Notes under the pieces: model-generated | Database searches by the model: none | Told to the model about the DNA's origin: nothing | What the model saw: only the letters and a program-made list of their open reading frames with translations | Source of the DNA: Desmodesmus armatus | Taxonomy: Eukaryota > Chlorophyta > Chlorophyceae > Sphaeropleales > Scenedesmaceae | NCBI GenBank assembly: GCA_007449985.2 | Contig: VIIQ02000247.1 | Span: 56,639-120,638 of the forward strand | Length of the DNA stretch: 64,000 nucleotides | Direction: 5' to 3' | Shown here: positions 12,672 through 63,418 of the stretch, piece by piece | Position numbering within the stretch: position 1 is the stretch's first letter | How the letters are laid out: each line of letters begins with the position of its first letter | Position numbers and translations under genes: made by a program

Positions 12672-14286
12672 ATGGATGTACTGGCTGGGCTCCTTGAGAG
12701 CCTGGCTGGCTTGCAGAAAGACCCAAACAGCACTGATCACTTGAGCACTGTGGCCACTCAGGTTCAGCAGCTGTTGCAGGTGGGAAGTCATGCTGCAAAT
12801 TGGCTCCCTGTAACGACCTATAACGCATCTGACTCTTGAGGAGCCACACCGCATCTGCCACCCAGATCCCTTGCCAGTCCTGTACACACGCCCTCTGACA
12901 GTGTACACACAACTCTGGTTGATCCTCTCACAGCTGTCCTAGCCTCTCTCTTGTTTGTATCCACCCCACAGGACGGTCTTGTGGGCAACCGTACTGTCGG
13001 CCACAGTGACGTGTGGGGCCTGGTGCTGGCAGCAACCAGGGCGTTCCCAATACAGCTGAGCCCTAGTGTTGAGAAGGCACAGCAGATGGTGGCAGAGGCA
13101 GCAGGCTCAGCACAGCAGGAGGAGCTCCTGCACACCTGGATCCTGCAGGTGTGGATATTCGAACACCACCCCAACCCCCTCTACTGCAGCACATGCTTGC
13201 ATTGCACGTGACACAGCATGAGTGCTGTGGGCAGCAACCCCCTGTCACATGTCCCATCAGCAGTGCCGCTCAAAAACGCAAGCGCACATGTGCATCGACG
13301 TGCATTGACACAGACGATACATCTGCACCGACTGCAACATCCCAGGAGGACAGCTAACCAAACACCTGTGTGCTCGTCGCATGTCATGTGCAGGCGGCCT
13401 CTGATGGCTCCCTGGCGGTGCTTGTCCAGAAGCTGCGCAGCCAGCCGCAGATACTGACAGCCTACGCGCGGCATGCGCCACTGCGCCAGCAGGCCACTGT
13501 GGACCAGCTGGTGGCAGCACTGCAGCAGCTGCAGGTGGGCACTGCACTGGTGTGGAGGGGGGGGGTGCAGGAAGAAGGGAAGGGACAGCTGCAGCTGGTG
13601 GTCGCACTGCAGCAGCTGCAGGTGGGCACTGCAGGGGGGGAGAGGCGGGGGAAGTGTGTGGGGAGTGTGTTGGCAGAGAGAGTGCAGGTGTGGGTTGGTT
13701 GGGCCACTGGGGGCAGGAGAAGGGAAGGGGGCAGCTGCAGTTGGTGGCAGCACTGCAGCAGCTGCAGGTGGGCTGTGCTGTGGTGTGGAGGGGGGGGGCG
13801 CACACATGTGTGGGTTGGGGGCAGGAGAAGGGATCGTGAAGCTGCAGGTGGAGACAGGCTGTGGTTGGGGTTGGGCTCACGCACATTCAAAAGCAAGTGC
13901 AGTGGCTGGAACGTATCGTGCATGATGGGCACACAAGTGTATACAATGTGCCGCTCATGTCTCCCCTATCCAGGCCTGCCATTTTCGCGCACAAGTCACA
14001 TGTTTTCAGCAGCCACACCTGCCCCGCCCCCCTCCCCGTTCTGTCTTGTCCCATCCTGCAGGCCCTGGTACCTGTCAGCCCCTATGACAGACACATGGCA
14101 GCCAAGGCCGCTGCTCCTGAAGCTTTGCCAGCACAGCAGCCAGTGCATATACAAACTGAGCTGGACCTGCCACAGCAACAGCAACAGCAGCAACAGCAGG
14201 CGCCGCTGGCACCGCATGTCAGCGCTGCAACTGGTGAGAAACCAGGCAGCAGCAAGCAGGTGGTCAACAGCAGTCAAGAAGACTCT

Positions 14287-14323
<37 letters not shown>

Positions 14324-15210
14324 GGTTTGTGGATCGGCTGCGAGGTGCGCGCATGCCACAGCTTGGGTCTTTCACAAGAAAGGCTGCGCAGCAACACCAG
14401 CAGCAGCCAAAGCAGCAACAACAGCAGCAGCCTGATGGCGAGCCATTGCTGCTGCAGGTGCAGTTGTTGCCGACGCCCTTGCAGCAGCCAAGCAGCAGCA
14501 GCAGCAGTGCTGGTGCTGGTGCACACGACAGGCTCGTGCAACTGAGAATCTGCCTGCTGCCAGTCCAGCAGGAGCAGCAGCAGCACCAAAATCGCAAGCA
14601 GCAGCAATCAGCAGCAACCAGCCGATCTCCCAGGGGTGGCGGCAGCAGTGGCAGCAGTGGCGGCCAGGCTGGTGGCAGCAGTGCTGGAGATCAAGTGAAG
14701 GGGCTGCTGCATGGGTTGCAGCAGAGTGCAGCTTCAGGGCTGCAGCAGTCAGCAGCAGCAGCTGCTACAGCAGCAGCGGGAGGGGTGGTGGCAGCAGCTG
14801 CAGCTGCCAAGGGCTTTGCCCGGTTCAGGTCAGGCAAGAAACAGCAGCAGGATGCTGCAGTAGCAGCGCCAACTGACAGCAACGGCAGCAGCAAGGTGTC
14901 CGCAGCAGCAGTGGGCAAACATCAGCACAGCAGGAGCACAGCAGCAGTAGCAGCAGCTGAAGCTGAGTTGCCCCTCATTGCCGTGACCCTTCGCCTGCGG
15001 CCTGATGAAGATGCCGTGCTTGCTGGGGGTCCAGTCAAGCTGGAGCTCAGTATACTTGCACCCTCAGCAGCAGCAGCAGCAGCAGCAGCAGCGGGTGGCA
15101 CTGAGGGAAGCTGGGCCTCTAGAAGTTTCCTTGACAGGCTGAAGCCTAGTAGAGGCACCACCGCCACCAGCAACAACAGCAGCAGAGGGGCATCGTCACA
15201 GCAGCAAGAG

Positions 15211-15244
<34 letters not shown>

Positions 15245-15665
15245 TGGGGACAGCAGGGGTGTTCAGGACCAACAGCTGCAGCATCAGGCAGGGGCCGTCA
15301 CGGCAGAAGAGGGAGACTTCTTGGAAGGGGACATGTGGACAATCATGTCCCGTCTGCGAGCTGGAAGCAGCAGCAGCAACAAGGCTGTAGCTAAGGCAGC
15401 AGCAGGGGTCTCTGCAGCAGCAGCAGCAGCAGGCGCCAGTGACGGCCCTACCCCAGCGCCTACAGCAGCAGCAACAGAAGCAGCAGCTGTCGTGCAGCAG
15501 CTGCAGGAATCAGGTAGCCTGCTGCAGCAGCAGCTGGAGCAGGCCTGCCTGTCTGTATGTGCTGCTGCTGCTGACACCAAGGGACCCCTAGGGGATGAGT
15601 CACCGCAACTGCTGCTGCTCATAGAGCACATCAAATGTTTGCTCAACCATGGCCTCAACAGCAGC

Positions 15666-15700
<35 letters not shown>

Positions 15701-18545: not shown

Positions 18546-21500
18546 ATGCAGAGTCAAATTTTGCAGAGCTGCAGTGGGCAGTGTTCCTTGCACACACCCG
18601 TTCCGTGGCCCAGAACCGCAAGCAGAGAGCGGGTAACCTCGTGCCCAGCTGCCAGGCAGACAGCACAAACGAAGACAGCCAGCACTTCATCAGATGTCAG
18701 CCTTATCAGCCGGCGAGATGGGTTGTTGCATGGCTTGTGCTGGACTGCAGCAGCAGTGTTGGCCACACCACCAGCATTCGCAGCAGCGCTGTCGCAGCCA
18801 GACATTGAGCAGTTGGAGGTGAGGCTGCAGCAATTGCTTCGAGTTGGAAAGCAGACTTGTATGCTGTTGGTTTGGTTTTCTGCATTCCGCATGGTGATGT
18901 CTGCACCCTAGCAGACTGCCAGGCTGTTGGGAGTATGGCTAGTATGGCCACCAAGCTGGCAATAACCGCAACCATTCTGCTTCAATAGCTGCACCATCTC
19001 TCACCCATTTGTCCCAGGATGTTCCTTTACTCATACAGATGCTACTAACAAAAGCCTGTAGAGAAAGCACAGGCGACAACATAACACCTCTTATCTGGAC
19101 CCCAGGCGGTCAATGATTTGCACCCCCACGGCGGTTCTAATCAGCTCAAGTTCTTACTGTAGCGTGCATTCCACAGCTGGAATCTGGCAGGTGCACAGCA
19201 CCTGACTCCCTCAACAGTTAGAGAGCTGCAGCATCGCAAGAGATGCCATATGGCAGAAGCTGAGTGCCAGCACAGCGACAAAAGCAACGGCAGGAGTACA
19301 CACCCATCCACCACATCCACCACCCCCACCACCCACTTCCCCCCCCCAGGTTGAGGCGTTTGAGTCGTATGCCAACAGGGAGTTCAGCACAGTGCTGCAG
19401 AAGCTAGAAGGCATTCTGGCAGCAGACCCCAACAACCCCCGATGGTTTGAGATGAGGGCACAGGTGGGCAGGAGCCATGTGTGCAGCAGGAGTAGGGATG
19501 TGTTGAAGGAGTAGGAGTAGGAGTAGGAGTGTATTGAAGGAGTAGGAGTAGGAGTGTATTGAAGGAGTAGGAGTGTATTGAAGGAGTAGGAGTGTATTGA
19601 AGGAGTAGGAGTGTATTGAAGGAGTAGGAGTGCATTGGATTGAGTCAGGTCTATCGCCACATTGCGACCAGTGTGTTGACTCATCAAGCACCTTCCTTGA
19701 GCACAAACTTATCAAATGAACGCCATTGCTGTTTGGAACAATACTGGGTTTAGCTGGCCAGTGCCGCTGGGGGCCACCCCTTCCCTAGCACACCACCGTG
19801 AGTCCCACCCATCAAGTTTTGCGGCAAAATGCAGGCACAATCACACAGGGTGTTGCAATTAGTATTCCTGTCATCCTTCAGCACTTGTATCATCCTTGTC
19901 TTGCATGTGTCCCCGTAACCTACTGCACCACTCGTTGGTTACCACACTCAGCATGACACTTGGTTTCAAGGGTACAAGCGCAAACACACTCCATGACCGC
20001 TATTTGCACCCCCCCCCCCCCCCCCGCCCACCTCACACTCCATAAATAGTGTGTCGCTCAACTGTGTCTGGTGCTGCTGTCCAACCTCATGCAGGTGCTT
20101 GTGGATGCCAAGCAGTTTGATGCAGCAGTGACGGACTTCAACCAGGCCTTGAAACTCATACCAGCAGGTGGGCGCAGGTGTCGTAGGGTTCTGATGTTGG
20201 GGCGTGGGGCTATCTGCGGTTGTGGTGTGATGCTTCTCGTGTGTAGTGTTTGAAAGAGAGGAAGGGCTCTGCCAAGTCTGCCACAGGGGACAGCCTTTGT
20301 TTGAACTTACAGGGTCAGTTGTTCAGCTTTGCGTGGCAAAGCAGTTTGATGCAGCAGTGACGGATTTCACCAGGCCTTGAATCTCATACCAGCAGGTAAG
20401 CGCAGTTGCTGTAGGGTTTCAGGGGTTGGGGTGTGGGGCTTCTGGTGAGCCTCACCAGTAGTTTTCTGAAACACTAGTAGTTTTCTGAATCAGGAGATGC
20501 ATTGCCAAGTCTGGCACAGCGCATACCCTTGCGGCATTGGCAAAGTCAGTATTTGGTTTGTTCTGGACACTCGTCAGTTGGGTCACTGAACCCTGTGTTC
20601 TTATCAACCTCGTTGGTGGAATCTCCCCCCCCCCCCCCCCGTGCCTCCTCTGCAGACCAGCCCGTCACAATGGCGCGGTTGAGATCAGGTCGTGCCTTGG
20701 CCTATGAGGGCTTGTCACAATGGCAAGATGCCCTCAATGACTACACAGCAGCCTCATGACCTCAACCCCAGGGCCCCCTCCTCTTCACAGATCCACCCAT
20801 ACCCCACGTGCCCAAACCCTGCCCTCGTCAATTGGGTCACTGCACCCTGTGTTCTCGGCATCCCCCCCCCCCCTTCCTCTGCAGACCAGCCCGTCACAAT
20901 GGCGTGGTTGAGATCAGGTCATGCCTTAGCCTACGAGGGCCTGTCACAATGGCAGGACGCCCCTATTGACTACACAGCAGCCTCATGACCCCAAACCGCC
21001 TCCCCTTCAAAGTTGCACCCATACCCTTACGAAAACCCTGCTCTTGTCAATTGGGTCACTGCACCCTGTGTTCTCCCCCCCCCCTCTCCTCTGCAGACCA
21101 GCCTGTCACAATGGCGCGGTTGAGATCAGGCCGTGCCTTAGCCTATGAGGGCCTGTCACAATGGCAGGACGCCCTCAATGACTACATAGCAGCCCTGGAC
21201 CTTGCACAAGCAGCTGGGGAGTCACCCGACGCTTACATAATCAACGCCATTGGCAACTGTCAGAACTCCCTGCAGCGGTGGGGTGAGGCGCGGGAGAGCT
21301 ACCTGACGTCAAGCCAACTCTTCCAGCAAGCAAAGGTAGCTTCTGTGCGACAAGGGTGGGATTGCGCAACAGCGTCAAGCCTGAAAGATTGCAGAGGCAG
21401 TGGTGCGCGTGTGCGTGCAGGCGTGTGTGTGGCTGCTGACGCAGAACACTGCACAAAGCGCTGATGCACAGGGGGGAGGTTGGTCGCGTGTCAGGCCGGC

Positions 21501-31066: not shown

Positions 31067-32419
31067 TCACAACAGCACCAGGCCACCAGCAATCTTAGGC
31101 AGGTCCTCAGCAGGCATGGGCCCCAATGCAAGTATCGTTCGGCTCTTGCGCGGCACCGCAGCATCCCCACCGCTGCTGCCGCCGCCGCCGCCGCTGCTGC
31201 TGCTGGGCACTGCCTCTGCTATGCTGTGGTATGGTATGCCTGCTGCTCGTGCTGCTTCCAGTGCTGCTAGTAGCTGCTGCTCGCTGTCGGCGCGTAGCAC
31301 CAGCTTGGGACCCTTGGACAGCTCCTGGCGTGACAAAAAGTGACAGGTGACCAGGTAAGGTGACAAGAGTAACAGAGGGTGAGAAAGAGTGAGGGCAGGC
31401 AACGGTAGTACCACCGGCATGCAATGCACAGGCAGTACTAATGCTGCACCTTGCACCACTGCATACCACCCCCTCTTTAGACAAACCTGAGTGGCAGCTT
31501 CTGCAGAGCCTCGCGTAGCTGGTACTACGGCATACCCAGCCTCTCCCCCCCCCCAAATTCCTGTAGTGCCCTGCAAGTCACCCATGGTGTGACGGCTGGG
31601 TTGCACATATCTTGCCAATACTGCACCTGGCACTCTTACATACCCCCCCCCCCCGACACAACCCAGACTTGCAGCTGCGCGGCCTGGTGTAGCTGCACCA
31701 TAACTGCACAAATCAGCCTCGCCCCCCCCCCCCCCCCCCCGCCCCCTCCTCATGTCCCAAAGGCCCTGCAACTCACCCACGGCTGCAATGCTGGGTTGCG
31801 TGCCTTGTAGAGCTTTCTGAACATAGCCAGTGCTGCATCCCCCCCCCCACCAGACACCACCTACGCGGCAGCTGTTGCTCAGCTGGGATAGCTGGTACTG
31901 TTACCCCCCCCCCCCCAAGGGCCCTGCAACTCACCCACGGCTGCAGTGCTGGGTTGCGGGCCTTGTAGAGCTTTTTGAAGAGGGCCAGTGCTGCGTGTGC
32001 CGTCATCACGGACAGCTTCTGCTTGCTCCACTGCAGGTCACGACGTACCACAAACACCATGCGCAACCTGCACACATACACGCGGCGGGGGGGGGGGGGG
32101 GTCAGGTGGTGGTGGTGGGTGTGTGTGTGTGTGGGGGGGGGGGGGCAGGGGCAAAAGTGGCAGTTGTTACACGATAGTGTAGTGCACTACAAACACCATC
32201 AGCAATCTGCAAGCAAGGGGGGGGGGACTGGCAGGTGGGGGGGGGACTGGATCTAGTATGGTGGCGGTGGGGAACAAACAGGCGGGGGGTTTGAGAGTGT
32301 CATGACATGGCACCACATGAACTCCAACCTCTGCTACTGCCGATACTCTTGTGCTGCTGATGCTCCTGCACTGCAACTTTCTGCTGCTGCATACTTGCCT
32401 GCTGGAGAATCCTGCCACA

Positions 32420-39167: not shown

Positions 39168-39241
<74 letters not shown>

Positions 39242-41430
39242 GTTGACAAGGGCCGCCAGTAGGTTAGCAGCACAGGCCTGTTGCGGGACTCATACTGAAG
39301 CTGGAACTCATTGGGCGTTAGGCCAGTGCGCCTGCAGCATCAGCAGTGGCAGCAGCGCCGACATCGGTGGTGGCAGGAGCAGCAGCAGTTGGTTCCGACA
39401 GTGGATGCAACACTAGGAGTGAATCCTGTCAGGCAGCAGCACCAGTCCACTCTGCTGGCGGGAGCACACAAGCAGTGATGAACAGAGGATTGCCAGTAGC
39501 CGTGGTCAACCGTTGACGCATCTACCCTGCCCAGAGTCTCTTTACCCCCCCCCCCCCCTACAAAGCCCCCACCCCCCTCGCGACCCCCACCTGTCAATGT
39601 TGTCCACCTCCAGCCACTCCCTCTGCAGCTCAACTGTGGCACAAAACCACGGCTGGTTCAACAGGTCACTGTAAAACCCTGATACCTGTTGGGCAGGCAA
39701 GGCAAGCAAACATGCAGTATGCTGTGCTAAGAAGTAAGGCATTATGGGGGAGATGTTACATGAGCGCTCTTCCCCGCCGTTCATGTAACAGCAGCATACC
39801 CAGTATGTTACATGGACATGTCCGCCAAACAACGATGGCATTGTCCAGCAGGGTCGAGCCAGGTCAACCTCATAAGTTGTGTGTGTGGTCTTGCCAAAAC
39901 GCCAAGCTGGGTGTGGGGTTGATTGCGGCACCTTGCTGATGAGTGCAGCTCAGCTGCAAGGAGACGTGCTGCTACGAGTCTGACACAAAATACGCTGTAG
40001 AATATCACCTTCCCGCATCACCTGCAGGGGTTTATGGCTGCCCAGCTTATACCCTGGTGCTGCGTGGGCCAGGTAGGTCTCACGCCAAGTGCCCCGCCAC
40101 TCAAAGTCTCCGCCTAGCTCCTACAAAGCAACAAAGTGAAGCATGAAAAAGAAGGCCAGTGGCTGTTGACCGCATGTGTGAGGGGTTATGGCTGCCCACG
40201 TCTCACGCCAACTACCGTGTCACTCAAAGTCCCAGCTTAGCTCTTGCAGATATAAACATCACCAGGGGAGCGTGGTTGTTCCCCAGACCAATGCAGCTGT
40301 GGTTGCGGCTGTGGTTGCCTGACTACACCTTTGAAGGAATGCATTTGACACCACAGACCTGTCAATCACACCCACCTGAAGCACCAAAGCTTTCCAGAGG
40401 TCATTCGTATGTGCGAAGCAGTAAAGGGCTTTGCTGGCCAGACCCAGCCTCGCCAGGTCAGCAGCAGGCAGCAGCTCCAGGAAACCTAGGATTACGTCAT
40501 CTGACAGACCTGACAGCACACCCAGTCCTGTAACACAGAACAGCACGCACAGCACAGCACAGCACAGCACAGCATAGCACAGCACAGTGTCAGCAGCAGG
40601 CATCAGCTCCAGGAGACCTAGGATGACATCATCTGACAGACCTGACAACACACCCAGGCCTGCAGTACAGCACAGCACGGCACAGCACAGCACAGAACAG
40701 GAGTGAGCACACAAAACTGCATGACATCGACAGCAACATCGTCCGATCAACCTGACAGCACACCCAGGCCTGCCACACAGCACATCACATCACATTACAG
40801 CACAGCACTGCACAGCGTCAGCAGCAGGCAGCAACTCCAGGAGACCTGAAATGACGTCATCTGACAGACCTGACAGCACACACAGGCCTGCAACACAGCA
40901 CAGCACAGCACGTGAAAGTGAGCCTGGGCGCATTTACATCCCCAGCTCCTCCTTGATAGTGCTGTTCTTGGTGCTTGTCAGCTGCTGTGTATTTTTTCAC
41001 TTACAGTTACAGTTACACAGTTACAGTACCATAAAAATGATTTTCAAACACCAAACTGAGGTCCCTCTGCCCTATCCGCCTTGAACCTCTGCCATACCAC
41101 GGCCCTCTCATTGCCCCCAGCCGTCCCCCACCTGCTCTGAAATATGCTGCTGCAACTCCCCACCCCCACTCCACCCCACAACCCCCCCCCCCATGCTTCA
41201 AGTGTATCTGCTGGTGGTCGGTCTCAGTGCACACACAACCCTCCCCCCACTACTCAACTGCTGTGCGTATATCACACACCCACTTTATGCAAACACACAC
41301 GCACCTGCTGTGCGTATCTCAGGCATTTGGCTGAGGTAGTAGTTACCTCAGGGTTGCACTCCAAGTCAAACCATCAACACTCCCACTTCTTTGCCCCTAC
41401 ACATGTCCAATTGATGTGCATTTGTACTGC

Positions 41431-41461
<31 letters not shown>

Positions 41462-42178
41462 ATACCCACACGCCTTTTGATTGCTGCCGCGTTGCCCCCC
41501 CCCCTTCTTGCCCCCCAACCCCCGCCAAACACGCACCTGCTGTTCGTATCTCAGGCGCTTGATTGAGGTAGTAGTTGCCCCTCCCGACCCCACTGTCAGT
41601 CTCGCCCCCCCCCCCCCCCCCCGCCGCCCCCCCCCCCCCCCCCCCCCGGCCCCTCCCACACCCAGTAAATTCGCGTGTGCAACACACGCACCTGCTGTGC
41701 GTATCTCAGGCACTTGGCTGAGGTAGTAGTTGCCCCAGGGCTGCACTCCATAGGGGTGGCTGCGGGGTGGGGTTGACTCATCATCATCATCTGACCCCTC
41801 CTCTTCTACAACACTAGCATCAGCACTATCGACCTCCTCTGACGATCCAGACCCGCTGTCTGACTGAAACTGTCCATTTGTGACGTGATTTCGCGACGGT
41901 TCAGCTGCCAGACCGTCTAACACAGCTGCTGCTGCTGTTGGGGTGCTGTCAGATGGTAGTTCCGCAGCTGTCTCTGCTGCCCGCCGCTTCGCTGCTGCTG
42001 CTGTGGTGACTGAAACGTCCAGCTGCGGGTATACTGCTATTTCGTCGACCAACTTGCGTTTTTGAGCCTTGCTGCTACTGGATGGCTGGGGTTCCTGCAG
42101 AGCCCCAGCTAGTGAGGGAAGGGGGGTGTCTGCAGCTGGCTGCTGCTCTGCCTGCGTGTCTGCTGCCTGCACGGGCAT
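34095..42178 (-). CDS. F-box plus JmjC-domain 2-oxoglutarate/Fe(II) oxygenase
   Basis: Eleven phase-exact exons encode 668 residues: 41692-42178, 40376-40527, 40022-40120, 39591-39685, 39021-39165, 38309-38407, 37664-37770, 36883-36998, 36500-36609, 34911-35107 and 34095-34494. Order: acidic N-terminus with a KAQKRKL basic patch; F-box ([20 protein letters not shown]); linker with VSGFYSDLL; then the JmjC domain. The predicted iron ligands are present: HxD in exon 8 ([13 protein letters not shown]) and His in exon 10 ([13 protein letters not shown]). [10 protein letters not shown] supplies the expected 2-oxoglutarate Lys. The Gln-rich tail ends GFSFGFSL. Architecture matches F-box/JmjC proteins such as plant JMJ21 and the JMJD6 branch, which hydroxylate or demethylate protein residues; the substrate here is unknown. 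Nearly every intron carries ghost exons. Confidence 0.93.
34150..34180 (-). repeat. Coding (CAG)n tract in the JmjC C-terminal exon
   Basis: About ten CTG units on the plus strand encode polyglutamine before LEGQGDGPG in the last exon. Confidence 0.9.
34707..34765 (-). repeat. Ghost copy of the end of JmjC exon 10
   Basis: Reproduces the last about 50 bases of exon 10 and its donor (GGGATGGAGGACAG then GT) inside intron 10, downstream of the real donor at 34910. Confidence 0.85.
34990..36290 (-). repeat. Six-copy tandem array containing the start of JmjC exon 10
   Basis: Landmark AGTGCCACC (plus strand) recurs at 35041, 35270, 35503, 35746, 35977 and 36218, a period of 229-243 bp. Each unit has an acceptor region and the code for [22 protein letters not shown], including the third iron-ligand His, plus a pyrimidine or C-rich tract. 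Only the last unit in sense (35107 down to 34911) continues to a donor. The acceptor AG is lost in the unit near 35340, and one copy has RGRWHS instead of RGWWHC. Others remain open for over 40 codons. Confidence 0.97.
36430..36492 (-). repeat. 9-bp tandem repeat just after the JmjC exon 9 donor
   Basis: Repeats of CCTGGCCCA on the plus strand (GGTGGGCCA in sense) follow the exon 9 donor at 36499. Every unit carries a donor-like GGTGGG. Unspliced read-through would encode a Gly-Pro-Gly collagen-like stretch. Confidence 0.85.
37366..37570 (-). repeat. Two ghost copies of JmjC exon 7 end and donor
   Basis: The exon 7 end ([18 protein letters not shown] with donor) at 37664-37730 recurs at 37489-37570 ([17 protein letters not shown]) and 37366-37430 ([15 protein letters not shown]). 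Each keeps TACAG then GTGC or similar. Runs of C on the plus strand separate them. Confidence 0.93.
37781..37855 (-). repeat. (CAG)25 microsatellite at the JmjC exon 7 acceptor
   Basis: On the sense strand this is (CTG)25, ending a few bases before the ACCCTGCAG acceptor of exon 7 (exon starts at 37770). It occupies the place of the polypyrimidine tract. Confidence 0.95.
38151..38294 (-). repeat. 36-bp minisatellite, four units, in JmjC intron 6
   Basis: Four contiguous 36-base units (core AGTTTGAACACAGTTTGAAA plus ACAAGACTGAACACAC), one base shorter or changed in places, directly after the exon 6 donor in sense. Confidence 0.93.
38505..38822 (-). repeat. Ghost copies of JmjC exon 5 end in intron 5
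   Basis: The exon 5 end ([17 protein letters not shown]...AAAFAGRP with donor) at 39021-39110 recurs at 38745-38822, in frame and with a strong GTAAGT donor, and at 38505-38602 ([17 protein letters not shown]...AFAGQP). A small fragment lies near 38920-38940. Plus-strand C runs lie between some copies. Confidence 0.93.
39171..39333 (-). repeat. (CAG)n tract at the JmjC exon 5 acceptor and an upstream ghost of the exon start
   Basis: 39171-39240 is about 24 CAG units with one TAG. In sense it is a (CTG)n block that runs straight into the CTGCAG acceptor of exon 5 (exon starts at 39165). Beyond it, 39262-39333 is another copy of the exon 5 start ([22 protein letters not shown]) with its own CTGCAG acceptor. 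Confidence 0.93.
40178..40250 (-). repeat. Ghost copy of JmjC exon 3
   Basis: Partial, degenerate copy of exon 3 (40022-40120), keeping the acceptor-side code for ELxxDFE and the TWRET region, interrupted by a stop. It lies in intron 2. Confidence 0.85.
40590..40890 (-). repeat. Three ghost copies of the JmjC F-box exon start
   Basis: Copies of [23 protein letters not shown] at about 40590-40662, 40725-40775 (short) and 40817-40890, each with an acceptor-like CAG. They are separated by (AGCAC)n microsatellite. The real exon is 40376-40527. All lie in intron 1. Confidence 0.93.
41258..41580 (-). repeat. Ghost copies of the JmjC exon 1 end and donor
   Basis: The exon 1 end ([16 protein letters not shown] with GTGCGT donor, down to 41692) recurs at 41537-41580 and 41305-41368, with a small third piece near 41258-41275. 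Long plus-strand C runs (sense G runs) lie next to the copies. Confidence 0.93.
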
Positions 42179-42552: not shown

Positions 42553-44643
42553 ATGCTCGCCAGCGGCCAAGTAGCACATCGGTTGGGTCTTCTCGCAGCA
42601 CAAAGCTTCTCTCGATACTCTCAGACGCTGCTGCAGTGTGACTTTAGCGCAGCAGCAGCATCAACAGCCAAAAGCACATACAATGTGCCTGAAGGGCACC
42701 ACAACAGCGACCTATCCAGCACAGCATGCCACATTGGGCTAGGCAGGCGGCGTGATTTGACCATGCGGCAGGACTTGAGGCTGTGGGATGGCGATAAGCC
42801 ACTGTCGCTGGCAGAGGTGTTCCAAGTGAGTTGGGGTTGGTGCTGTTGGTGGGGTGGTTGAGACCTGTTGGGGGCACAAACAGTTTTCAAGCGCAAGCTG
42901 TACTGGTGTGGTGTACAAACGCGACTATAGAGCAGTAGGTTTGGCGTGCTCCATGTGGGTTGGGGCTAGTGGGGTGGGCGGTGTAGATGCTCACTTTACT
43001 GGCTGAAGTTTCCTTACAATTCCTTACAGTTTCCAGCCATGAAAGCTGTGGTGGGCTTTGCTGTAACACAGCGCACCTGTCATGGGGTAATAGTTTGCTG
43101 AGAAAGCAGTGTCCCTGTGTGTACAAGGGTGGAGGGTGTCTATGGGGAGGGGCTTGTGCGGTGTTGGAAGTACTGTCTAGATGGGCAGGGCTGGAGTCAG
43201 TCAGTCCGATGGATGTGGGGTGTGTTGGGGGCTAGGTGCTAGTTGTAAGCTAGTGCTCACTCGGAACATGCCACAATGGTCAAAACCCCCGCATAGAGGG
43301 AGGGCACATGTGTCAGGTCCTACACTGCAACATGGCTGAACGCTTCATCAAGCAGCAGCAACTGCAGTAGCCTAAAGGTAAAATGTCTGGCAGTAGCTGT
43401 TATGGTGGTGGCAGCAGCAACGGCAGCAGCATCACAATCTCCCAGCACATTGGTGCAGTTCAAGATGGGGCACTAGCAACGTGTTGCTATCGTTATACAT
43501 CACAGTAGAGTGGCCTGCTGTTGGGCAAAGAATCCTGCTAGGTGCGAGAACAGAGGCAATGGTTGTTTTAGAGTTGATGTGTCAAAGAGTGGGAACCTGA
43601 AAGCAGCAGCAGCAGCAGCAGCAGCAGCATGGCATCGCCGCTGTGTGTGCTTCCACGTCTGCCTTGCGCGCCATTCGTGTGTTTCCCTGCCTCACTATCA
43701 ATCAGTGCAGCAACAGCAGCAGCAGATGTAGCGCAACAGTTCTGAGCAGCAGCAGAAGCAGCAGCAGCAGCAGAAGCAGCAGCAGAAGCAGCAGCAGAGG
43801 CAGCAGCACACTCCTCATTCAACCTGTATCACACTCATTCAACCTGTATCACACTCATTGCCTCTCGTCCCCCCAACCCCAACACCAACCCCGACCTCCA
43901 AACCGTTTCCAAACCATCACCAACAAACACATGGTTCCGCTTTATGCGTCACACTCTCACTCTGTGTGTCGCTCCCAGCCTGAGACGATCGCTCTCACGT
44001 GATGTGTCATTGCCTCTCTAATGCGTCAATCCATGCTGTGTGTCACGGTCATTCTTCATTCTCACTCCCTTGATTCTAACTCTCTTCATTCTCACTCCCT
44101 TGATTCTAACTCTCTTCATTCTCAATCTTTGTCCAACCCCCCCCCCCCCCCCCCCCCCCTCAACAGGACTGTAAGGCGCTGCTGGTGGGCTTCCCAGGTG
44201 GCAAGGTGTGCAGCGAGCAGCAGATACCAGGATATGCAGCAGCGGTGAGTGACAGGGGCTGGGGTGGGTGGGTGGGGATGTGTGTGTGTGTGGGGGGGGG
44301 GGGTGCCGGGATTAAAATTTGCTTCAAGGCTATGGTAGGGGTGTTGTTTCTTAGTGGAATTGCTGCGTTATTGCTGTTGACGGGTGGTGGTGGCGTGGGA
44401 GGGGGAGGGGGGAGGTGCGGCGCGCACCAGATACCAGGCTATGCAGCAGCGGCCAGTGACCGGGGTCGGAGGGGGGGGGTGAACTTGAAGGGCAGCTTGT
44501 CTGTGTCAGTGTTTCGGGGAGGGGGGGGGGCACAGTAGACAACCAGCTATGCAGCAGCAACGAGAGGCAGGAAGGGGGGTCGCCACTGACATCTGTTCCC
44601 CACTGCTGCCGCCACCATTGCTGCTGCTGCTCCGCCCCACCTC

Positions 44644-44721
<78 letters not shown>

Positions 44722-46907
44722 AGTCGTCTGCGCTGAAGGCTGCTGGTGTGGACAAGGTTGTGTGTGTCACCGTGGGGGAGCCAGCCGAGGTGCAGCGGTG
44801 GGCAGCACAGCACGGCTTTGACAAGGCACCACTGGTGAGACAGAAGGATATGTCTGGGTCGTGGGGTGGGGGACGCTGGGGCAGGAGAGGGGCCGGGGAG
44901 GGGGGGGGGCATAGCAGGAGAGGGGGGTCCCAGCACCAGTGGTGAAGCCGGAGTTGGGCCTGAAGGGAGCGGTGGGCAGCACAGCACGGCTTCGACAAGG
45001 CAGCACAAGACAGACGGGAGGGGGGAGCCGGCTGAGGTGCAGCGGTGGGCAGCACAAGACGGCTTCGACAAGGCAGCGCTGGTGAGACACTGTTTCTTCT
45101 GGCAGGAAGGGGGGTGAGGGGAAGGGGGGAGAGGGAGGGTGGGGGTGGGGGTGTCAAAGCAGCGAGGTGTGTGGTGGTGTATGCTGAGGTCTGGCTGAGG
45201 TGCAGCTGTGGGCAGCACAACACCGTACCTGTTTGGCTGGGGGGGGGGGGTCAAAGCAGCAAGTGTTGTGGTGCTGTGGGGTTGGGGTCAAAGCAGCAAT
45301 GGTGGGGGGTCAGACCAATGGTGGGGGTCAAAGCAGCAAACTGTGTGTATGTGTATGCTGAGGTTTGTCGGAGGTGCAGCGGTGGGCAGCACAACACGGA
45401 TTTGAATATTAATTATTAAGTTATTATTTTTAATTATTAAATAATAAATAATAACAATTTTGACAAGGCAGCACTGGTGAGACTGGAGGGTGCAGATGTG
45501 TGTTGAACGCATACGTGTGTGTGGGGCGGGGGGGGGGGGGAGGGAGAGGGGAAGGGGGAGCCTGGTTCAGCGAAAGTGCAGCGCCGATGGACCGGTGAGC
45601 AGCACAGCATGGCTTCAACAAGGCAGCGCTGGTGAGACTGGAGGGAGGGGAGGAGGGCAGGGGAGGGGCAGCACAGCACAGTCATGATAAGGCAGCAGAT
45701 GCTGACCACAGCTAGTCGTGTGCGTGTCCACAGCCACAACTCTTCTCGTGCTGATGTCCCTTCCCTGCTGCCCTCTTCACCCCCCCCCCCCCCCATTTCT
45801 CACCCGACAGCTGTGGGTGTTGTAGCCGACCGCAGCTAGTCGTCTGCACTAGTCGTCTGCACGACACAGCTACAACCACTTTCACCCTGACGTCCTCTTC
45901 TGCCTTCTGCTGCCCTCCCCCCCCCCCTCTCACCCCCAGCTTCAGGTTTTGTCTGACCGCAACCATTCCTTTGTGCGTCTGGTGGATTCACCCCTCTGAC
46001 CCCCCCCCCCCCCTGCTCCCCCCCCCCTGCTTTGTGCTGCCCCCTGACCTGCATGTGTCAACAGCTGCGGGTGCTGTCTGACTGCAAGCAGTCCCTGGTG
46101 TGCCTGTTGCATTCACCCCTGTGATCACTCCCTATCTTGTCCCGCCTGCTGTATGTGCCCACAGCTGCAGGTGTTGTCTGACCGCAACCAGTCCTTTGTT
46201 CGCTGTACAAAACCCTCTCCCCCCCCCCTTCCCTCTGATCCCCCCCTTCCGTCTTTGTGCTATCTTTATGTCTGTCCACAGCTGCAGGTGCTGTCTGACC
46301 GCAACCAGTCCTTTGTGCGGCTGCTGGGTCTGGAGCTTGGCCCTGAGGGGCCGCAGTGCCAGCGCTTTGCAGCAGTGGTGGATGGTGGCATACTGCTCAA
46401 AGTGGTGCGTGGTGTCAGTGCAGGCGGGGGGGGGGGGGGGTCCCGTAAAAGGGGTGGGGAGGGAAAAAGGGTGGGGAGTGGTTGTGTTAGTGCGGCGGTG
46501 GTGACGGAGATTGCATTGTTCAGACCAGTGTGTGGCACATGTGGGGTATGTGGCAGACGTGTGTTACTTGGGCAGGGGTTGGGGAGGTGGGGGTTTGGGC
46601 TGGTTATACCGCACAACCAGCGGCTGTTTGTGCATGTGGGTCTGGAGTTGGGTCCTGAGCAGCAGCCACAGTGGCAGCTCTTTGTATTGTTTTCTGCTTT
46701 GTACTGTTGTTGCAGCTCAGGCTGTATGAGTCTCCTGTATGTTTCTTGCACAGTTCGCGAGTCTATCTGATGGCAACTGCTGTACTCACCCTGCTGCTGC
46801 TGCTGCTGCTGCTGCAGAGGGTTGAGGCTGCCCCAGCAGACCTGAAGCTGACCGATGCCAAGTCAATGCTGACAACCTTCAAGGCAGCATACGGCCAGCA
46901 CGAATGA
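42553..46907 (+). CDS. Organelle-targeted type II (PRX5-like) peroxiredoxin with altered active-site loop
   Basis: Thiol peroxidase family. Five phase-exact exons: 42553-42825, 44167-44244, 44724-44834, 46282-46404 and 46818-46907, giving 224 residues. Exon 1 holds a long targeting-like N-terminus and the conserved start LRLWDGDKPLSLAEVF. Exon 2 carries the peroxidatic Cys (LLVGFPGGKVCSEQQIPGYA), exon 3 the expected second Cys (GVDKVVCVTVGEPAEVQRWA), exon 4 LSDRNQSFVRLLGLELG...FAAVVDGGILLKV, and exon 5 VEAAPADLKLTDAKSML. Compared with the usual PGxxTxxCS loop, PGGKVCS is two residues shorter and lacks the catalytic Thr. The protein may therefore be weakly active, a sensor, or specialised. Most of the 4.35 kb is intron filled with ghosts and homopolymers. 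Confidence 0.88.
43812..44125 (+). repeat. Short tandem repeats in peroxiredoxin intron 1
   Basis: 43812-43855 holds two copies of a 20-bp unit (ACTCATTCAACCTGTATCAC). 44055-44125 holds about two and a half copies of a 30-bp unit (CTTCATTCTCACTCCCTTGA then TTCTAACTCT). A 20-base-plus C run follows, just before the exon 2 acceptor. Confidence 0.9.
44427..44560 (+). repeat. Two ghost copies of peroxiredoxin exon 2 end
   Basis: The exon 2 end (CAGATACCAGGATATGCAGC, 44221-44240) recurs at 44427-44451 and, more degenerately, at 44531-44560. Both are preceded by G runs and lie in intron 2. Confidence 0.85.
44655..44720 (+). repeat. (CTG)22 microsatellite forming the peroxiredoxin exon 3 acceptor tract
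   Basis: Twenty-two CTG units run directly into CAG, and exon 3 starts at 44724. No conventional pyrimidine tract lies between. Exon 5 has the same arrangement with (CTG)8 at 46791-46814. Confidence 0.95.
44960..45695 (+). repeat. About six ghost copies of peroxiredoxin exon 3 end
   Basis: Copies of VQRWAAQHGFDKAPL with its GTGAGAC donor recur near 44963, 45028, 45184, 45360, 45574 and 45668, each with small changes. G runs follow several of them. The copy at 45360-45481 is split by an AT-rich insertion (45406-45458). Confidence 0.92.
45401..45463. mobile_element. 53-bp AT-only insertion flanked by TTTGA duplications
   Basis: A ghost of exon 3 is interrupted after TTTGA (45401-45405) by 53 almost pure A/T bases and resumes with TTTGA again (45459-45463). 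Comparison with the uninterrupted exon (CGGCTTTGACAAGG) shows this is an insertion with a 5-bp target-site duplication. It shares an exact 20-base AT word, in opposite orientation, with the tract at 49620-49663. Confidence 0.75.
45810..46215 (+). repeat. Four ghost copies of peroxiredoxin exon 4 start with acceptors
   Basis: Acceptor plus CTGCAGGTGTTGTCTGACCG-like starts occur at about 45810, 45940, 46065 and 46165; the real exon starts at 46282. Spacing is 100-130 bp. C runs precede the copies. Each copy loses similarity after about 40 bases. Confidence 0.93.
46615..46680 (+). repeat. Ghost copy of the middle of peroxiredoxin exon 4
   Basis: CGGCTGTTTGTGCATGTGGGTCTGGAG... matches the code for RLLGLELGPEGPQCQRF with several changes. 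It lies in intron 4, downstream of the real exon. Confidence 0.75.
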
Positions 46908-50445: not shown

Positions 50446-50489
<44 letters not shown>

Positions 50490-50523: not shown

Positions 50524-50561
<38 letters not shown>

Positions 50562-50637: not shown

Positions 50638-50680
<43 letters not shown>

Positions 50681-54077: not shown

Positions 54078-56615
54078 ATGATGCAACAAAAACTGCAGAT
54101 GCAAGCTCGGGTGGAGCCTTCGCGTTCTGTGGCCACAGTGTCTAAATGCCAACGTGGCGTTTCCATCCTCTGCAGCAGCACACGCACAGACGCAGGCACA
54201 AATAGGGCTGGGAGGACCCTAGAAGCCGTTCTGCAGGACGCAGGCATAGAGGCTTCGGTCCTGGGCAGCGTGCGTCAGGTAGGGTGGTAAGCCAGTCTGT
54301 TGCTAGGTTGGGGTTGCTGCAACCTCTCAGAGGACGTTGAGCCCCCTGTAACTCGTGCATCTCACACTATCACCCTTCCATCACCCCTCTGAAGTGGGTT
54401 TCATGCTGCTGCTGTACCTTGCAGAGGGCCCCCGAGCTGAGCTGTGTCAGTGTGCAGGATCGAGTGGAGCCGCTGCTGCAGTTCCTGCAGTCCATGCAGC
54501 TCCAGCCTGACGATCTGCGAGGCATGCTGCTTCGCTGCCCTCGCCTGCTGTCCTTCAGCATGCAGCGGCAGGTGCTGCCTGTGGTGCAGTTCCTGCAGGA
54601 GGACCTTGGGTTTGATCAGCACCAGGTGTCAGCAACACTCAAGCGCTTCCCTGGCATCATGGGGTAAGCGTGATCTTGCAGCTGTCACTCAGGCTGCTGT
54701 GCTGGGTAGTGCCCCGCATAGACAGTTATATGATCTGATCAAGGCTGTGCCTCCTGCTAAGCAGTGCTTCCCTGTTGGACTCCTGTTGTGTGTATCCATG
54801 GATGGTGGTGGATGGGGGGTGGTTGCTGCTGTTCGCACCTGACCAGGAGGAGACCTTCTGCTGCAAGGCATGCGCTCTTTGGTTGTTGGTGTCAGTGAGC
54901 ACCTCACCAAGCTTTGTGTGCTAGGCAATGCACGGTCACAATGCTTGCGCCCTGATGTCAGTGCGGTTGGCTGGGGCTGCTCCTTCACCACCACCTCAAT
55001 GTGTCCCTACTGATGTGCCCAGCCCACCTGTCTGCCTGCAGGTATGGTGTGAAGAGCCACCTTGTGCCGCACTGCCACTACCTCAAAAGCCTGGGCATCT
55101 CGCAGGAGGAGCTCCCACAGCTCATTCTGGCACGGCCACAAGTCCTGGTGAGCAACCCTGCTGTTTTTTTGGGGGGGGGGGGGAGTTTGTTACAAGTAGA
55201 TACTTTCACCGCAAAGTGGTACTCTCTACCGTTCTAGGGACAGCGTCCAGCAACTTGGGGCGGATTTTGAACCCTGGGTAGTTGACTGCGGTATGGAAAC
55301 TGCAGTTGCAGGGTGCGTGGGTGGAAACATTGGACAGTGTGTATGCCCTCACACCATGCAGCCGCAGAAGCATGTGATGCACTTGAAGCCATTAGCAAGT
55401 AAGGATGGTGCCTGCATCTTCATGATGCTGCGCCATGTGCCAAACATGCCCCCCCCCCCCCCCGGCTCATTCTCCCTACTCCTTCACCCTCCTTCAAGAC
55501 GACAATCAAACAGACCATCCGTCTAGTTTCAACCCTACGCCCTGACACAAGGTGCGCGCGTGCGCCCGCACGCGCCTTGTGTCAGGGCGTAGGGTTGAAC
55601 TATACAGATAATTTGTTTGATTGTCGTCTTGGCACCTTATGGTTTTCGCAGGGCACCAGCATCAAGCTGGTGATCACCTATCTGCGCAAGCGGGTATGCA
55701 TGTTGGCCGCCTGCTGTGGTCCACCCGCTGGACTTGCCCCACTGCGCCAGGGGCCCCCTTTTCAGTTCCCCCTTTTCACCCCCAGGGCGCAGCAGTGGGC
55801 TTGTGATGTACCTACCGCACAAGATATCCAACGTCCGTCACTCACACCAGCCCCCCCCCCACCCCTCTCATACTCCCATTCCCTCTATGATATCTGCAGG
55901 GCACCAGCATTGAGCTGGTGATCACTTACCTGCCTCCCCTCGCCCCCAGCCCAACCTTCCCTCCTTGACTCCTGCAGGGCACCAGCATTGAGCTGGACAC
56001 CACCACCTGCGCAAGAGGTTTTCCCAGGCTTCCGCACACCCCTCACCTCACCTGCAACCCCCGATGTTTTGCTGCACCCCCACCTCATTTACCTCACACC
56101 CTCACCTTCCTTGCACCGCTTGCTTCACGCAGGGCACCAGCATTGAGCTGGTGATCACCTACCTGCGCAAGTGGTTGCGCATCGAGCGCAGCCATGTTGG
56201 CCGCCTGCTGTGGTCCTACCCCCTGGACTACAGCCTGCCGCGCCTGGTCATGCCAGCAGACACCACCCCAGTGGAGGCTACTGCTACCTTGGATGAGGCA
56301 GATACTGCTAGTCAGCTGACTGACTCTGATATTGGCAGCGGCAGCAGCGCGAGCGCGTCCTCGCAGCCGACGAGCAGCAGCGGCGGCGATGGCAGCGCTG
56401 TGCCGGAGCAGGAGCAGGGGCAGCAGCAGGCGCGGCAGGCGGTGTCTATGTGGGGGTCGCCGGATGCGTGCAGCTGGTTGGACTTGGCCTTGAACAAGGA
56501 TGGCACCGTCAGCAGCAGCAAAGACGGCGGCAGCAATAGCAGCGGTGACGCCCCCGACAGCAGCAGCGGTGAGGAGGGCAAAGGTGGTGAGCAGCCGCCT
56601 CCTACTGCAGCGTGA
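54078..56615 (+). CDS. mTERF-domain organelle protein
   Basis: mTERF proteins bind organellar nucleic acids and act in transcription or RNA maturation. Exons 54078-54278, 54425-54663, 55042-55147 and 56133-56615 join in phase, giving 342 residues. The start is the first ATG of an in-frame basic, Ser-rich targeting-like segment. The mTERF repeats read VEPLLQFLQSMQLQPDDLRG, MLLRCPRLLSFS, VVQFLQEDLGFDQHQVSATL, LKSLGISQEELPQLILARPQVL and IELVITYLRKWLRI, then VGRLLWSYPLDYSLPRLVMP. The tail after 56250 is Ser/Gly-rich and poorly conserved in type. Intron 3 carries a long foldback and three ghosts of exon 4. A TGTAA lies at 57502-57506. Confidence 0.9.
55496..55630. mobile_element. 135-bp foldback element in mTERF intron 3
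   Basis: Outer arms 55496-55511 (AAGACGACAATCAAAC) and the last 16 bases of the element are exact reverse complements. An inner 25-base perfect pair starts TTCAACCCTACGCCCTGACA and continues ACAAGG. Between outer and inner pairs the arms diverge. The tip is a GC-rich purine/pyrimidine alternation (GCGCGTGC). It could be a MITE-like insertion or a strong RNA hairpin. Confidence 0.85.
55652..56010 (+). repeat. Three ghost copies of mTERF exon 4 start with acceptors
   Basis: GGCACCAGCATTGAGCTGGT-like starts follow acceptors at 55652, 55900 and 55978; the real exon starts at 56133. The first copy also keeps a damaged version of the HVGRLLWS region further on. C runs precede the copies. Confidence 0.93.
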
Positions 56616-61219: not shown

Positions 61220-61836
61220 CTATGGAGCTCAAGAGCTCATGCCAGCCATTCACTGGCACCGGGCACATGTGCCTGGCACAAAAAACGTATCTCCTCTCAG
61301 GCAACAGGTTGGATGGACTTACAACCAAGCCATATAGCATCTACATACACTATGTCACACTTGTATTGTGTGAGATTGGACTGATATCACGGAGACCTCA
61401 TCACAGCTCCCTCAGGAGGTATGGCCACCACAGCAGGAACATGAGCACCACAACAACAGTGTTGCACCACAGCACAGCACACCTCAGCATGGCAGTGCAC
61501 TGCATCACCACAGCACAGCACAGCACAGCATCAACAGTGTGACACGTGCATCACTGATACACGACATAATCACTGATACATGGCACTGGTCATGGCATGA
61601 TCGCAGCCAACTGTCCCAACCATGGACAGCTGTCGCTAGCACAAGCCCAAGGTGGTGCACGGACAGCATCCAGAGAGCACACACACTGCTTCACCATTCC
61701 CGCAGCTGCTGTCGCTGCTGGCAGCTGCACGAGGGAACAGCAGCTGCTGTCTCCCAGCTTGCCATCGCTGCTGCTGCTGCTGCTGTTGCAGTATGCATAA
61801 TTTCCTCAATCCCCTGTTCATGCCATGAATGACCCT

Positions 61837-61949
61837 CTAGTCCATGAACAGTGGTGGGCATGCAGTGCGCCGCCACTCTGCCAGGGCAGAAGCCCGCAGC
61901 ACAGCAGCAGCACGAGCAGCAACAGCAGCAACGTGAGCCTCCTTGGCCT

Positions 61950-62012
<63 letters not shown>

Positions 62013-63418
62013 ACCAAAGGCATCAGCAGCAGCGCGGATACACAAGTGCAACAGGTGCCAGGAGCCCTCCCTGCCAGGTAGTGGATGCGCTCCTCCCTCT
62101 CTGTCGTATGTGTGAAGTTGCCCCACATGTTGACAGAGTCAATGCTGCTCGGCCCCACACAGCCCACAGCACCCCTCCTTATGAAGCCAAGTGTCTCACC
62201 CCCCCCCCCCCTTCACCACCACAACCACAATCCCTTCGGGACAACCCCTTGCATTGTCACACTGCTCCCCTGTGCCCCTTGACCTGCTTGAGACGACCCC
62301 CACCCCCTGTTCACACAACTTGCCCCCCCCCCCCCCGTGTTCACCCCCCCCCCCCCCCCGTGTTCACCCCCCCCCCCCCCATTCCCCCGTTACCTTGTCG
62401 CACTGTTCGTTGTGTTTGTCCAGCTGCTTCTGCTGCTCTGCCTTCTCAGCGTCTGTGAGGGGCAGCTCAGTGTCCTCACCATCACTGTCCTCATCATCAG
62501 CCTTGGCAGCTAGCCTGCAGAAAAAAGTGTACGCATGTGATGGGTTTGCAGGCAGATGGGGGGGGGGGGGGGGTCAGGGGGGGGGGGGGGCCAAGTGTGG
62601 TTGCTGGAATGCAGTGCAGCATTACTGTCCTCCTCATCAGCCTTGGCAGCTAGCCTACCGGGGGGGGGGGGGGGGGGGGAGGGGGAGAAGATGTGCAATG
62701 GGGGGAGGGGGTGTCTCAGTGTGTGGGTGTATATGTGTGTTGTAGTACTGCAGGGCCGTCTCACTGCCCTCCTTGTCAGCCTTGGCAGCAGGCCTGCAGG
62801 GGGAGGGGGGATCAGGGAAGGGGGGGGGGGTAAAATTGGGTGTTGGGGCAGGCGTATTTTGCATCAGGGTGCCAAGGCTTACATCAGCAGCCAGCCTGCA
62901 GGGGTGGGGGTATGTGGGAGGGGGGGGGTTCCAACAAAGTGAGCGTGAGAGCAGGTAGACGTGTCAGGGCACTGCAGTGCGGCATTACTGCCCTCCACAT
63001 CAGCCTTGGCAGCAAGCCTGTGAGGGGGGGGGGGGGGAGGGCAGAGAGGGGGTAGGGGGGTGTCCAACACAATGATGAGTGTAAGGCCAGGTAGATGTGT
63101 GTTAGGGCGCTGCAGCTCTGCAGTCAAGTCTGCCTCCACTACTACTACTACTATTACTACTATCACCCCCCTTCCTTTGGGAAGGTGGCCATCCCCTTTG
63201 CTTATAGATGTGAACATGCAGTGCACTCACTTGCGCCTGAAGCGTGGTGGCAGTGGGATCTCCAGGGGTGGCACAGGGGGTGGGGGTGGACCCAGCAGTG
63301 CAGCACTGCCCAGCTGCTGCTCCAGTCGAGCCACCAGGGGGTGCAGCAGCGGCTTGCCGTGCTGTGAGAGGGGCGTCAGGCGACTTGACACACCACAGCA
63401 CAGCGTGCCCTGTGACAT
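61837..63418 (-). CDS. Unrecognised Pro-rich/acidic helical protein (5' end uncertain)
   Basis: Three phase-exact exons: 63231-63418, 62394-62514 and 61837-61947. They encode a Gln/Pro segment (HPLVARLEQQLGSAALLG, then PPPPPVPPLEIPLPPRFRRK), an acidic stretch (AAKADDEDSDGEDTELPL), a charged helix (AEKAEQQKQLDKHNEQCDK) and an Ala-rich helix ending EWRRTACPPLFMD-stop. The ATG at 63418 gives 138 residues. However, a strong pyrimidine tract followed by CACAG just inside it suggests an acceptor before GTLCCGV, so upstream exons may lie to the right. No family recognised. Intron 1 carries ghosts of exon 2, and intron 2 ends in a (CTG)n acceptor. Confidence 0.65.
61951..62009 (-). repeat. (CAG)20 microsatellite at the exon 3 acceptor of the right-end gene
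   Basis: In sense, (CTG)20 runs directly into TAG, and the exon begins at 61947. This is the same arrangement as in the peroxiredoxin and JmjC genes. Confidence 0.93.
62611..63022 (-). repeat. Four ghost copies of right-end gene exon 2 start
   Basis: Copies of the acceptor-side code (LAAKADDEDS) lie at about 62611-62659, 62745-62800, 62865-62901 and 62965-63022. Plus-strand G runs (sense C runs) sit beside each. Spacing is 100-140 bp. The real exon is 62394-62514. Confidence 0.92.

What the first reader, a model, noticed from the sequence alone, without database searches (positions are those of the whole stretch)
13591..63022. Splice-junction satellites: tandem 'ghost exons' in the introns of seven genes
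Real exons of the RUN, TPR, PTH2, JmjC, peroxiredoxin, mTERF and right-end genes are accompanied by roughly 40 partial tandem copies of themselves. Each copy includes one splice junction (acceptor plus exon start, or donor plus exon end), in the gene's own orientation, at 80-250 bp spacing. Copies decay by substitutions, lost AGs and early stops, and usually only one carries both junctions. The genes are unrelated, so this is a locus-wide mutational or selective process. I know of no described class that matches. It would enlarge introns and create decoy splice sites.
Basis: partly seen in the sequence, partly recalled or inferred. Interest (0 to 1): 0.93.

Follow-up and report, generated by a model that had tools for sequence, protein, structure and literature searches.

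The report
Decaying tandem copies of exon ends
Short stretches of DNA in this green alga have repeatedly been copied next to themselves across exon-intron borders, leaving decaying exon fragments that make up about half of the intron sequence in the genes examined; it looks like an extreme case of a known kind of duplication, made visible because the working exon stays unchanged while its copies rot.

Summary
In seven hand-modelled genes of this Sphaeropleales-like alga, 16 of 26 introns (17 with one borderline) hold 49 partial copies of their own flanking exon ends, in gene orientation. Copies come from the adjacent exon (20 of 52 tests, against 1 of 128 for other introns of the same gene). 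In the 4 introns with both kinds, donor-side and acceptor-side copies never interleave.

Best explanation: local tandem duplication (unit about 50-350 bp) crossing a splice junction. One junction keeps working; the other copy joins the intron and decays. Codon positions 1, 2, 3 differ by 0.087, 0.090, 0.193 and intron flanks by 0.169, as expected of a neutral copy beside a constrained exon. A 233-bp, one-mismatch example elsewhere shows the first step, with 3-bp microhomology. Similar copies occur near 6 of 30 helicase exons (0 of 30 on the reverse strand). Arrays span 48% of intron bases.

Geometry alone does not fully explain the junction link (P 0.003-0.02 with array-free intron lengths); adding survivorship does (masking exon-derived bases drops detectable families from 16 to 4). 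Junction targeting, with G/C-rich breakpoints, stays possible. Single junction-crossing duplications are in print; dense arrays are the new part.

The parts
13394..13789 (+). RUN-domain gene: exon 13394-13534; donor-side copies 13592-13633 and 13738-13789 in intron 3
   Evidence: RUN domain
20095..20418 (+). TPR gene: exon 20095-20167; donor-side copy 20336-20418 in intron 2
20645..21335 (+). TPR gene: acceptor-side copies 20645-20762 and 20875-20990 upstream of exon 21097-21335
   Evidence: a query from 21163 onward has a single match in the genome
21649..22524 (+). TPR gene intron 3: acceptor-side copies 21975-22064 and 22190-22249 upstream of exon 22408-22524; weak donor-side copy 21649-21691
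31565..32067 (-). PTH2 gene: exon 32067-31935; donor-side copies 31836-31759 and 31604-31565
   Evidence: PTH2 domain
40585..42178 (-). JmjC gene intron 1: donor-side copies 41581-41524, 41363-41301, 41279-41252; acceptor-side copies 40911-40798, 40794-40736, 40685-40585
40022..40248 (-). JmjC gene intron 2: one weak acceptor-side copy 40248-40200 upstream of exon 40120-40022
   Evidence: flank not recognisably homologous
39021..39335 (-). JmjC gene intron 4: acceptor-side copy 39335-39252 upstream of exon 39165-39021
38506..39165 (-). JmjC gene intron 5: donor-side copies 38939-38893, 38822-38734, 38595-38506
   Evidence: intron flanks of the two testable copies not recognisably homologous
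37361..37770 (-). JmjC gene intron 7: donor-side copies 37570-37470 and 37419-37361
34911..36302 (-). JmjC gene intron 9: five acceptor-side copies (36302-36152, 36063-35911, 35832-35674, 35585-35442, 35362-35208) upstream of exon 35107-34911
   Evidence: genome search matched only this locus
34703..34771 (-). JmjC gene intron 10: donor-side copy
   Evidence: flank not recognisably homologous
44167..44465 (+). Peroxiredoxin-like gene: exon 44167-44244; donor-side copy 44415-44465
   Evidence: Redoxin domain
44724..46404 (+). Peroxiredoxin-like gene intron 3: seven donor-side copies within 44968-45711, then four acceptor-side copies within 45795-46205, upstream of exon 46282-46404
   Evidence: genome search with 44960-45100 matched only this locus
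46608..46684 (+). Peroxiredoxin-like gene intron 4: decayed donor-side copy
55627..56615 (+). mTERF gene intron 2: acceptor-side copies 55627-55751, 55769-55823, 55896-55933, 55955-56020 upstream of exon 56133-56615
   Evidence: intron flanks not recognisably homologous
62394..63020 (-). Right-end gene: acceptor-side copies 63020-62962, 62799-62761, 62656-62617 upstream of exon 62514-62394
   Evidence: flank homology between copies, not with the real exon

Best explanation
Short local tandem duplications (about 50-350 bp, probably from replication slippage or microhomology-mediated template switching) occur often in this genome. A duplication with one breakpoint in an exon and one in the adjacent intron is harmless, because one intact junction remains: the outer one is spliced and the inner copy becomes intron. 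The copy then decays neutrally while the working exon is held by selection. That keeps these duplications recognisable long after purely intronic or intergenic ones have faded. Repeated rounds at the same junction build arrays and lengthen introns. Shown: local direct copies, adjacency, donor/acceptor separation, neutral decay on average, homologous intron flanks in many pairs, one nascent case. Inferred: the DNA-level mechanism, that the copies are not spliced, and that survivorship rather than targeting makes up the rest of the junction link.
For: Exon against adjacent intron 20 of 52 hits, non-adjacent introns of the same gene 1 of 128. Donor and acceptor copies separated in 4 of 4 introns holding both kinds (chance 1/20, 1/330, 1/3, 1/3; one search also prints JmjC intron 9, which rests on the dropped hit). 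50 copies including the dropped one: codon positions 85/975, 88/977, 188/975, intron flanks 109/645; ratio of position 3 to positions 1+2 2.18, bootstrap 1.79-2.66. Intron flanks homologous at P<=0.05 in 18 of 47 real-copy and 17 of 54 copy-copy pairs. L038 4028-4496: 233-bp unit carrying an exon end plus GTGAGC donor, one mismatch, 3-bp AGC microhomology. Genome searches with two arrays matched only their own locus. Masking. Arrays span 8136 of 16825 intron bases; median intron with arrays 639, with arrays removed 258, array-free 357.
Against: 29 of 47 real-copy pairs show no significant flank homology. Some of these have little-changed exon blocks: JmjC intron 5 copy at 38739 (2 of 55 changes at positions 1+2) and the outermost copy of JmjC intron 9 at 36284 (2 of 89), whose upstream side should match if the whole unit was copied. 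Homologous flanks are 0.78 identical (1339/1716), a little below the roughly 0.82 the exon data predict. With array-free intron lengths, geometry alone gives P 0.003, or 0.02 with a 1.5-fold survivorship weight; only a weight of 3 gives 0.18. Array-free introns are longer than copy-bearing ones with arrays removed (357 against 258, P 0.014). In JmjC intron 9 two copies share nearly identical intron parts but differ in the exon part, suggesting gene conversion. Density varies unexplained: 0.60 families per 10 kb in 20 stretches of four large contigs, 2.72 in helicase loci on other contigs, 2.97 in the window. Residual intron excess after masking 2.89 against 0.77 per 10 kb, P 0.08. Microhomology rests on one event.
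Confidence: 0.8

Rival explanations
1. Duplication is targeted to splice junctions: G-runs after donors and C-runs before acceptors (or R-loops there) stall or break DNA, so copies arise preferentially at junctions.
For: 15 of 16 genic families cross a junction where geometry with array-free introns predicts 60% (P 0.003); G/C-runs of 8 or more in 14 of 17 copy-bearing introns and 2 of 9 others, Fisher P 0.0085 (counts, test); bases just outside donor-side copies G-rich 0.43 against 0.37 (P 0.046) and outside acceptor-side copies C-rich 0.43 against 0.33 (P 0.005); residual intron excess P 0.08.
Against: Survivorship can make up the difference. Runs sit inside the repeated unit and are copied with it; copies are not independent; run length at the edges is not raised (P 0.34, 0.35); several copy-bearing loci lack runs (JmjC introns 2 and 10; L014 and L023).
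Confidence: 0.25
2. The copies are functional or alternative exons (tandem exon duplication, mutually exclusive splicing), kept by selection.
For: Some copies differ mainly synonymously (JmjC intron 5 copy 38822-38734, 8 synonymous and 2 non-synonymous codons; L015 and L027, read by eye); AG intact in 23 of 25.
Against: Overall 136 synonymous and 162 non-synonymous codon changes, 6 stops in 50 copies, positions 1 and 2 changing at about half the intron rate; by eye no copy has both junctions.
Confidence: 0.04
3. A dispersed mobile or satellite element (introner-like) inserted into introns.
For: Many introns of unrelated genes are affected.
Against: Each array resembles its own adjacent exon; the only distant pairs in the window are CAG repeats; 1 of 128 non-adjacent hits; the two arrays searched genome-wide matched only at home.
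Confidence: 0.02
4. Assembly artefact or merged haplotypes.
For: L038 is 99.6% identical and was not checked with reads.
Against: The window copies differ by 9-19% per site class, with stops and indels; artefacts would be near-identical.
Confidence: 0.02

Closest known systems
Tandem genomic duplication crossing an intron-exon boundary, potato RdRp gene (PMC4974935; abstract and Results read)
   Different: In potato the event created a new intron and an inserted exon segment; here the copy appears to be swallowed by the intron and decays. The paper treats one such event; here 49 copies lie in 16 introns.
Tandem exon duplication / mutually exclusive exons (PMC9013439; Methods and Results sections and passages read)
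   Same: Exon sequence copied in tandem within its gene. At 80% identity or more, about 2% of human, 0.08% of fly and 0.06% of worm exonic nucleotides have such homologs.
   Different: Here the copies are partial and on average neutral, and far denser: 34% in the seven window genes (picked because they have copies) and 4.7% in 30 helicase exon cores. Methods differ, so only the order of magnitude compares.
Exonize 'inter-boundary' and 'intronic' exon matches (PMC12343006; passages read)
   Same: Categories for exon copies that run over exon-intron borders or lie in introns, including degenerate exons.
   Different: A catalogue category; the passages I read give no junction arrays, neutral-decay test or intron-growth measure.
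Intron gain by exonic AGGT tandem duplication (Rogers model, as described in PMC4974935, Results read, and PMC2891723, passages read)
   Same: Tandem duplication of exon sequence reshapes an intron.
   Different: There an exonic segment is duplicated and a new intron forms; here one breakpoint lies in an existing intron.
Introners / introner-like elements (recalled)
   Same: Intron-associated repeats in algae and other protists.
   Different: Introners are dispersed copies of one element; these arrays are private to each junction.

Membership tests
Junction-crossing tandem duplication | Copies local, direct, from the adjacent exon | tested here: met
Junction-crossing tandem duplication | Whole unit, intron side included, is homologous | tested here: inconclusive
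   18 of 47 real-copy pairs significant where about 2 are expected; 29 not recognisable
Junction-crossing tandem duplication | Breakpoint microhomology | tested here: inconclusive
   one young event, 3 bp
Junction-crossing tandem duplication | Redundant copy evolves neutrally beside a constrained exon | tested here: met
   on average over 50 copies
Mutually exclusive / alternative exons | Copy has both splice sites and an open, constrained frame | tested here: not met
   by eye no aligned block spans both junctions; 162 non-synonymous, 136 synonymous codons, 6 stops
Mutually exclusive / alternative exons | Spliced into mRNA | not testable with these tools
   no RNA data
Introner elements | Same element dispersed through many genes | tested here: not met
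Satellite DNA | One monomer family in long arrays or at many loci | tested here: not met
   the two arrays searched genome-wide matched only at home; the others were not searched

The most novel reading that the evidence does not exclude
Splice junctions are real duplication hotspots in this alga: G-runs downstream of donors and C-runs upstream of acceptors provoke template switching, so that splicing signals themselves drive intron growth.
Probability: 0.25. Interest if true: 0.8.

Novelty: new variant of a known kind. Interest (0 to 1): 0.55.

Why it matters
How introns lengthen is usually invisible, because intronic duplications fade. Here the conserved exon freezes one member of each pair, so the number and age of duplications can be read and the rate of intron growth measured. 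It also offers a natural library of partial decoy acceptors and donors for testing how the spliceosome picks the outer site, and a warning for gene annotation: protein-to-genome aligners may pick copies as exons.

Tried and rejected
Ab initio gene finding: a self-trained HMM missed most exons that I could read by eye and was abandoned for hand models. The models are partial (TPR and mTERF lack their first exons). The RUN model has 14 stops in all, though its first 400 residues, as printed, are open; its first four introns were used. PRX had one stop until its last exon was moved; it was not re-translated. JmjC exon 11 was still misplaced by a few bases and corrected.

Selection against decoys: AG intact 23 of 25 (expected 0.83, P 0.30); GT intact 15 of 25 (P 0.005), but 4 of the 10 losses are the dropped minisatellite or copies whose alignment stops short of the junction (ranges), leaving 15 of 21, P 0.15. 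Frame preference of spacing: 18, 17, 14 by modulo 3. JmjC intron 9 looked selected by eye, but its family totals are 31/440 at positions 1+2 and 44/218 at position 3, not set apart. My first placement null used a 250-bp cap; the fairer one with each intron's array removed fits less well, so I lowered confidence from 0.85 to 0.80 and raised the targeting rival from 0.20 to 0.25. An earlier count gave 11 families in the 20 stretches; searches give 12.

Literature: eight paper searches listed no paper that I recognised as describing arrays of this sort; only four papers were opened, and the library lacks most subscription journals.
Full report
What was checked. The window's JmjC protein is 72% identical, over the full query, to a Tetradesmus obliquus protein, its best hit, so I take it to be a Sphaeropleales green alga (inference). 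Self-comparison showed 57 local direct pairs, 2 distant ones and, with palindromes set apart, no separate inverted pair.

Gene models. I modelled seven genes by hand, some only in part. TPR, PTH2, JmjC, mTERF and the right-end gene read open across the modelled exons. Pfam finds RUN, TPR, PTH2, JmjC/Cupin_8 with an F-box-like match below its cut-off, Redoxin and mTERF, and nothing in the right-end fragment. The JmjC model matches the T. obliquus protein without extra copies (read by eye). There are no RNA data.

The copies. With simple repeats masked, 17 of 26 introns hold copies of their own junctions, against 1 of 52 reverse-complement tests and a threshold set at the top 1% of 1044 other-intron tests. 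A rerun with longer queries gave 50 copies; I drop one minisatellite hit, leaving 24 donor-side and 25 acceptor-side in 16 introns. In one search, 20 of 52 exon-adjacent-intron tests were positive and 1 of 128 exon-non-adjacent-intron tests. In the 4 introns with both kinds (5 with the dropped hit), donor copies lie together next to the donor and acceptor copies next to the acceptor. Tandem duplication forces this; scattered insertion would not.

Neutral decay. Differences between copy and working exon are 85/975 at codon position 1, 88/977 at position 2, 188/975 at position 3 and 109/645 in adjoining intron. If the copy mutates freely and the exon only silently, positions 1 and 2 should change at about half the intron rate and position 3 near the intron rate, as seen. 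The ratio 2.18 (bootstrap 1.79-2.66) excludes a ratio of 1; a much higher ratio, expected of selected copies, is also outside the interval. A minority look more synonymous than average (JmjC intron 5; L015 and L027 by eye).

Whole-unit duplication. Intron flanks beyond the junction are homologous in 18 of 47 real-copy pairs where about 2 were expected by chance, and in 17 of 54 copy-copy pairs. 29 real-copy pairs are not recognisable. Some have little-changed exon blocks (JmjC intron 5, and the outermost copy of JmjC intron 9), which a simple whole-unit copy does not explain; later deletion, gene conversion or more complex template switching could. The clearest event is outside the window: L038 4028-4496, a 233-bp unit with an exon end and its GTGAGC donor, one mismatch between copies and a 3-bp AGC microhomology (the exon was read by eye).

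Why junctions? I placed random units of observed sizes in the genes and asked how often a tolerated one crosses a junction: 36% with present introns, 60% with each intron's array taken out, 64% with a 350-bp cap, 81% with a 250-bp cap. Against 15 of 16 observed families this gives P 2e-6, 0.003, 0.008 and 0.16; with junction copies detectable three times longer, 0.006, 0.18, 0.26 and 0.67 (an earlier version with present lengths and the 250-bp cap is). A factor of that size is plausible, because with exon-derived bases masked the same search finds 4 instead of 16 families in the genes and still 3 outside. After masking, introns still have 2.89 families per 10 kb against 0.77 outside the genes (P 0.08). 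So geometry plus survivorship suffices, geometry alone does not, and modest targeting is not excluded. Unit sizes, the weights and the classification of families are my choices.

Genome-wide extent. I took the best 30 of 87 Helicase_C matches as a sample not picked for copies. 6 of 30 exon cores have a same-strand partial copy within 1.5 kb and 0 of 30 a reverse-strand one (L018 and L028 lie in the same gene region). Family density is 2.72 per 10 kb in 26 helicase loci on other contigs, 0.79 in 4 on the large contigs, 0.60 in 20 evenly spaced stretches of four large contigs and 2.97 in the window. The low value on large contigs is unexplained. Those contigs hold 12 of 87 helicase and 7 of 141 kinase matches (lists) on 4.9 of 115.8 Mb (lengths), so they do not look gene-poor.

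Scale. Copies at 80% identity or more amount to 34% of exon bases in the seven genes, which were picked because they have copies, and 4.7% in the helicase cores. A published survey reports about 2% for human, 0.08% for fly and 0.06% for worm, with a different method (PMC9013439, Results read). Arrays span 8136 of 16825 intron bases.

Mechanism hints. Copy-bearing introns have G/C-runs more often (14 of 17 against 2 of 9, P 0.0085), and the bases just outside copies are G- or C-rich (P 0.046 and 0.005), but runs are part of the repeated unit, copies are related, and run length at the edges is not raised. Spacerless palindromes (17 rows, 16 distinct by position, and no separated inverted pair) suggest template switching at forks, which could also make tandem duplications; this is inference.

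Relation to known work. A junction-crossing tandem duplication is in print for a potato gene (PMC4974935), and degenerate or border-crossing exon copies are a recognised category (PMC12343006). What I did not find in eight searches of the held library is a description of arrays of such copies making up half of intron sequence.

Noticed in passing
window 55495-55631, 6553-6700, 23764-23800, 36780-36808; L004, L016, L018, L022, L031, L034, L038, L044, L050: Short spacerless palindromes (29-192 bp, 71-98% identity), 17 rows and 16 distinct by position, with no separated inverted repeats; the one at 55495-55631 matched nowhere else in the genome.
   Followed up: partly
introns of the seven genes: G-runs go with donor-side copies and C-runs with acceptor-side copies on the coding strand; the two could base-pair across an intron.
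   Followed up: no
L037 6739-7896, L048 6861-7383, L049 4309-4664, L039 332-809: Repeats that look coding by eye have offsets that are multiples of three (423, 138, 144, 309); coding status was not tested and the examples were picked by eye.
   Followed up: no
window 14287-15700, 37780-37854, 39168-39240, 44643-44721, 50342-50737: Long CAG-type triplet runs in both exons and introns.
   Followed up: no
window 35813-36302 (-): Two neighbouring JmjC copies with nearly identical intron parts but different exon parts, and mosaic-looking alleles among the six units, suggesting gene conversion.
   Followed up: no
contigs C2, C3, C4, C563: Far fewer local duplications and G/C-runs of 9 or more (1.4 against 9.4 per 10 kb) than the window.
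   Followed up: partly
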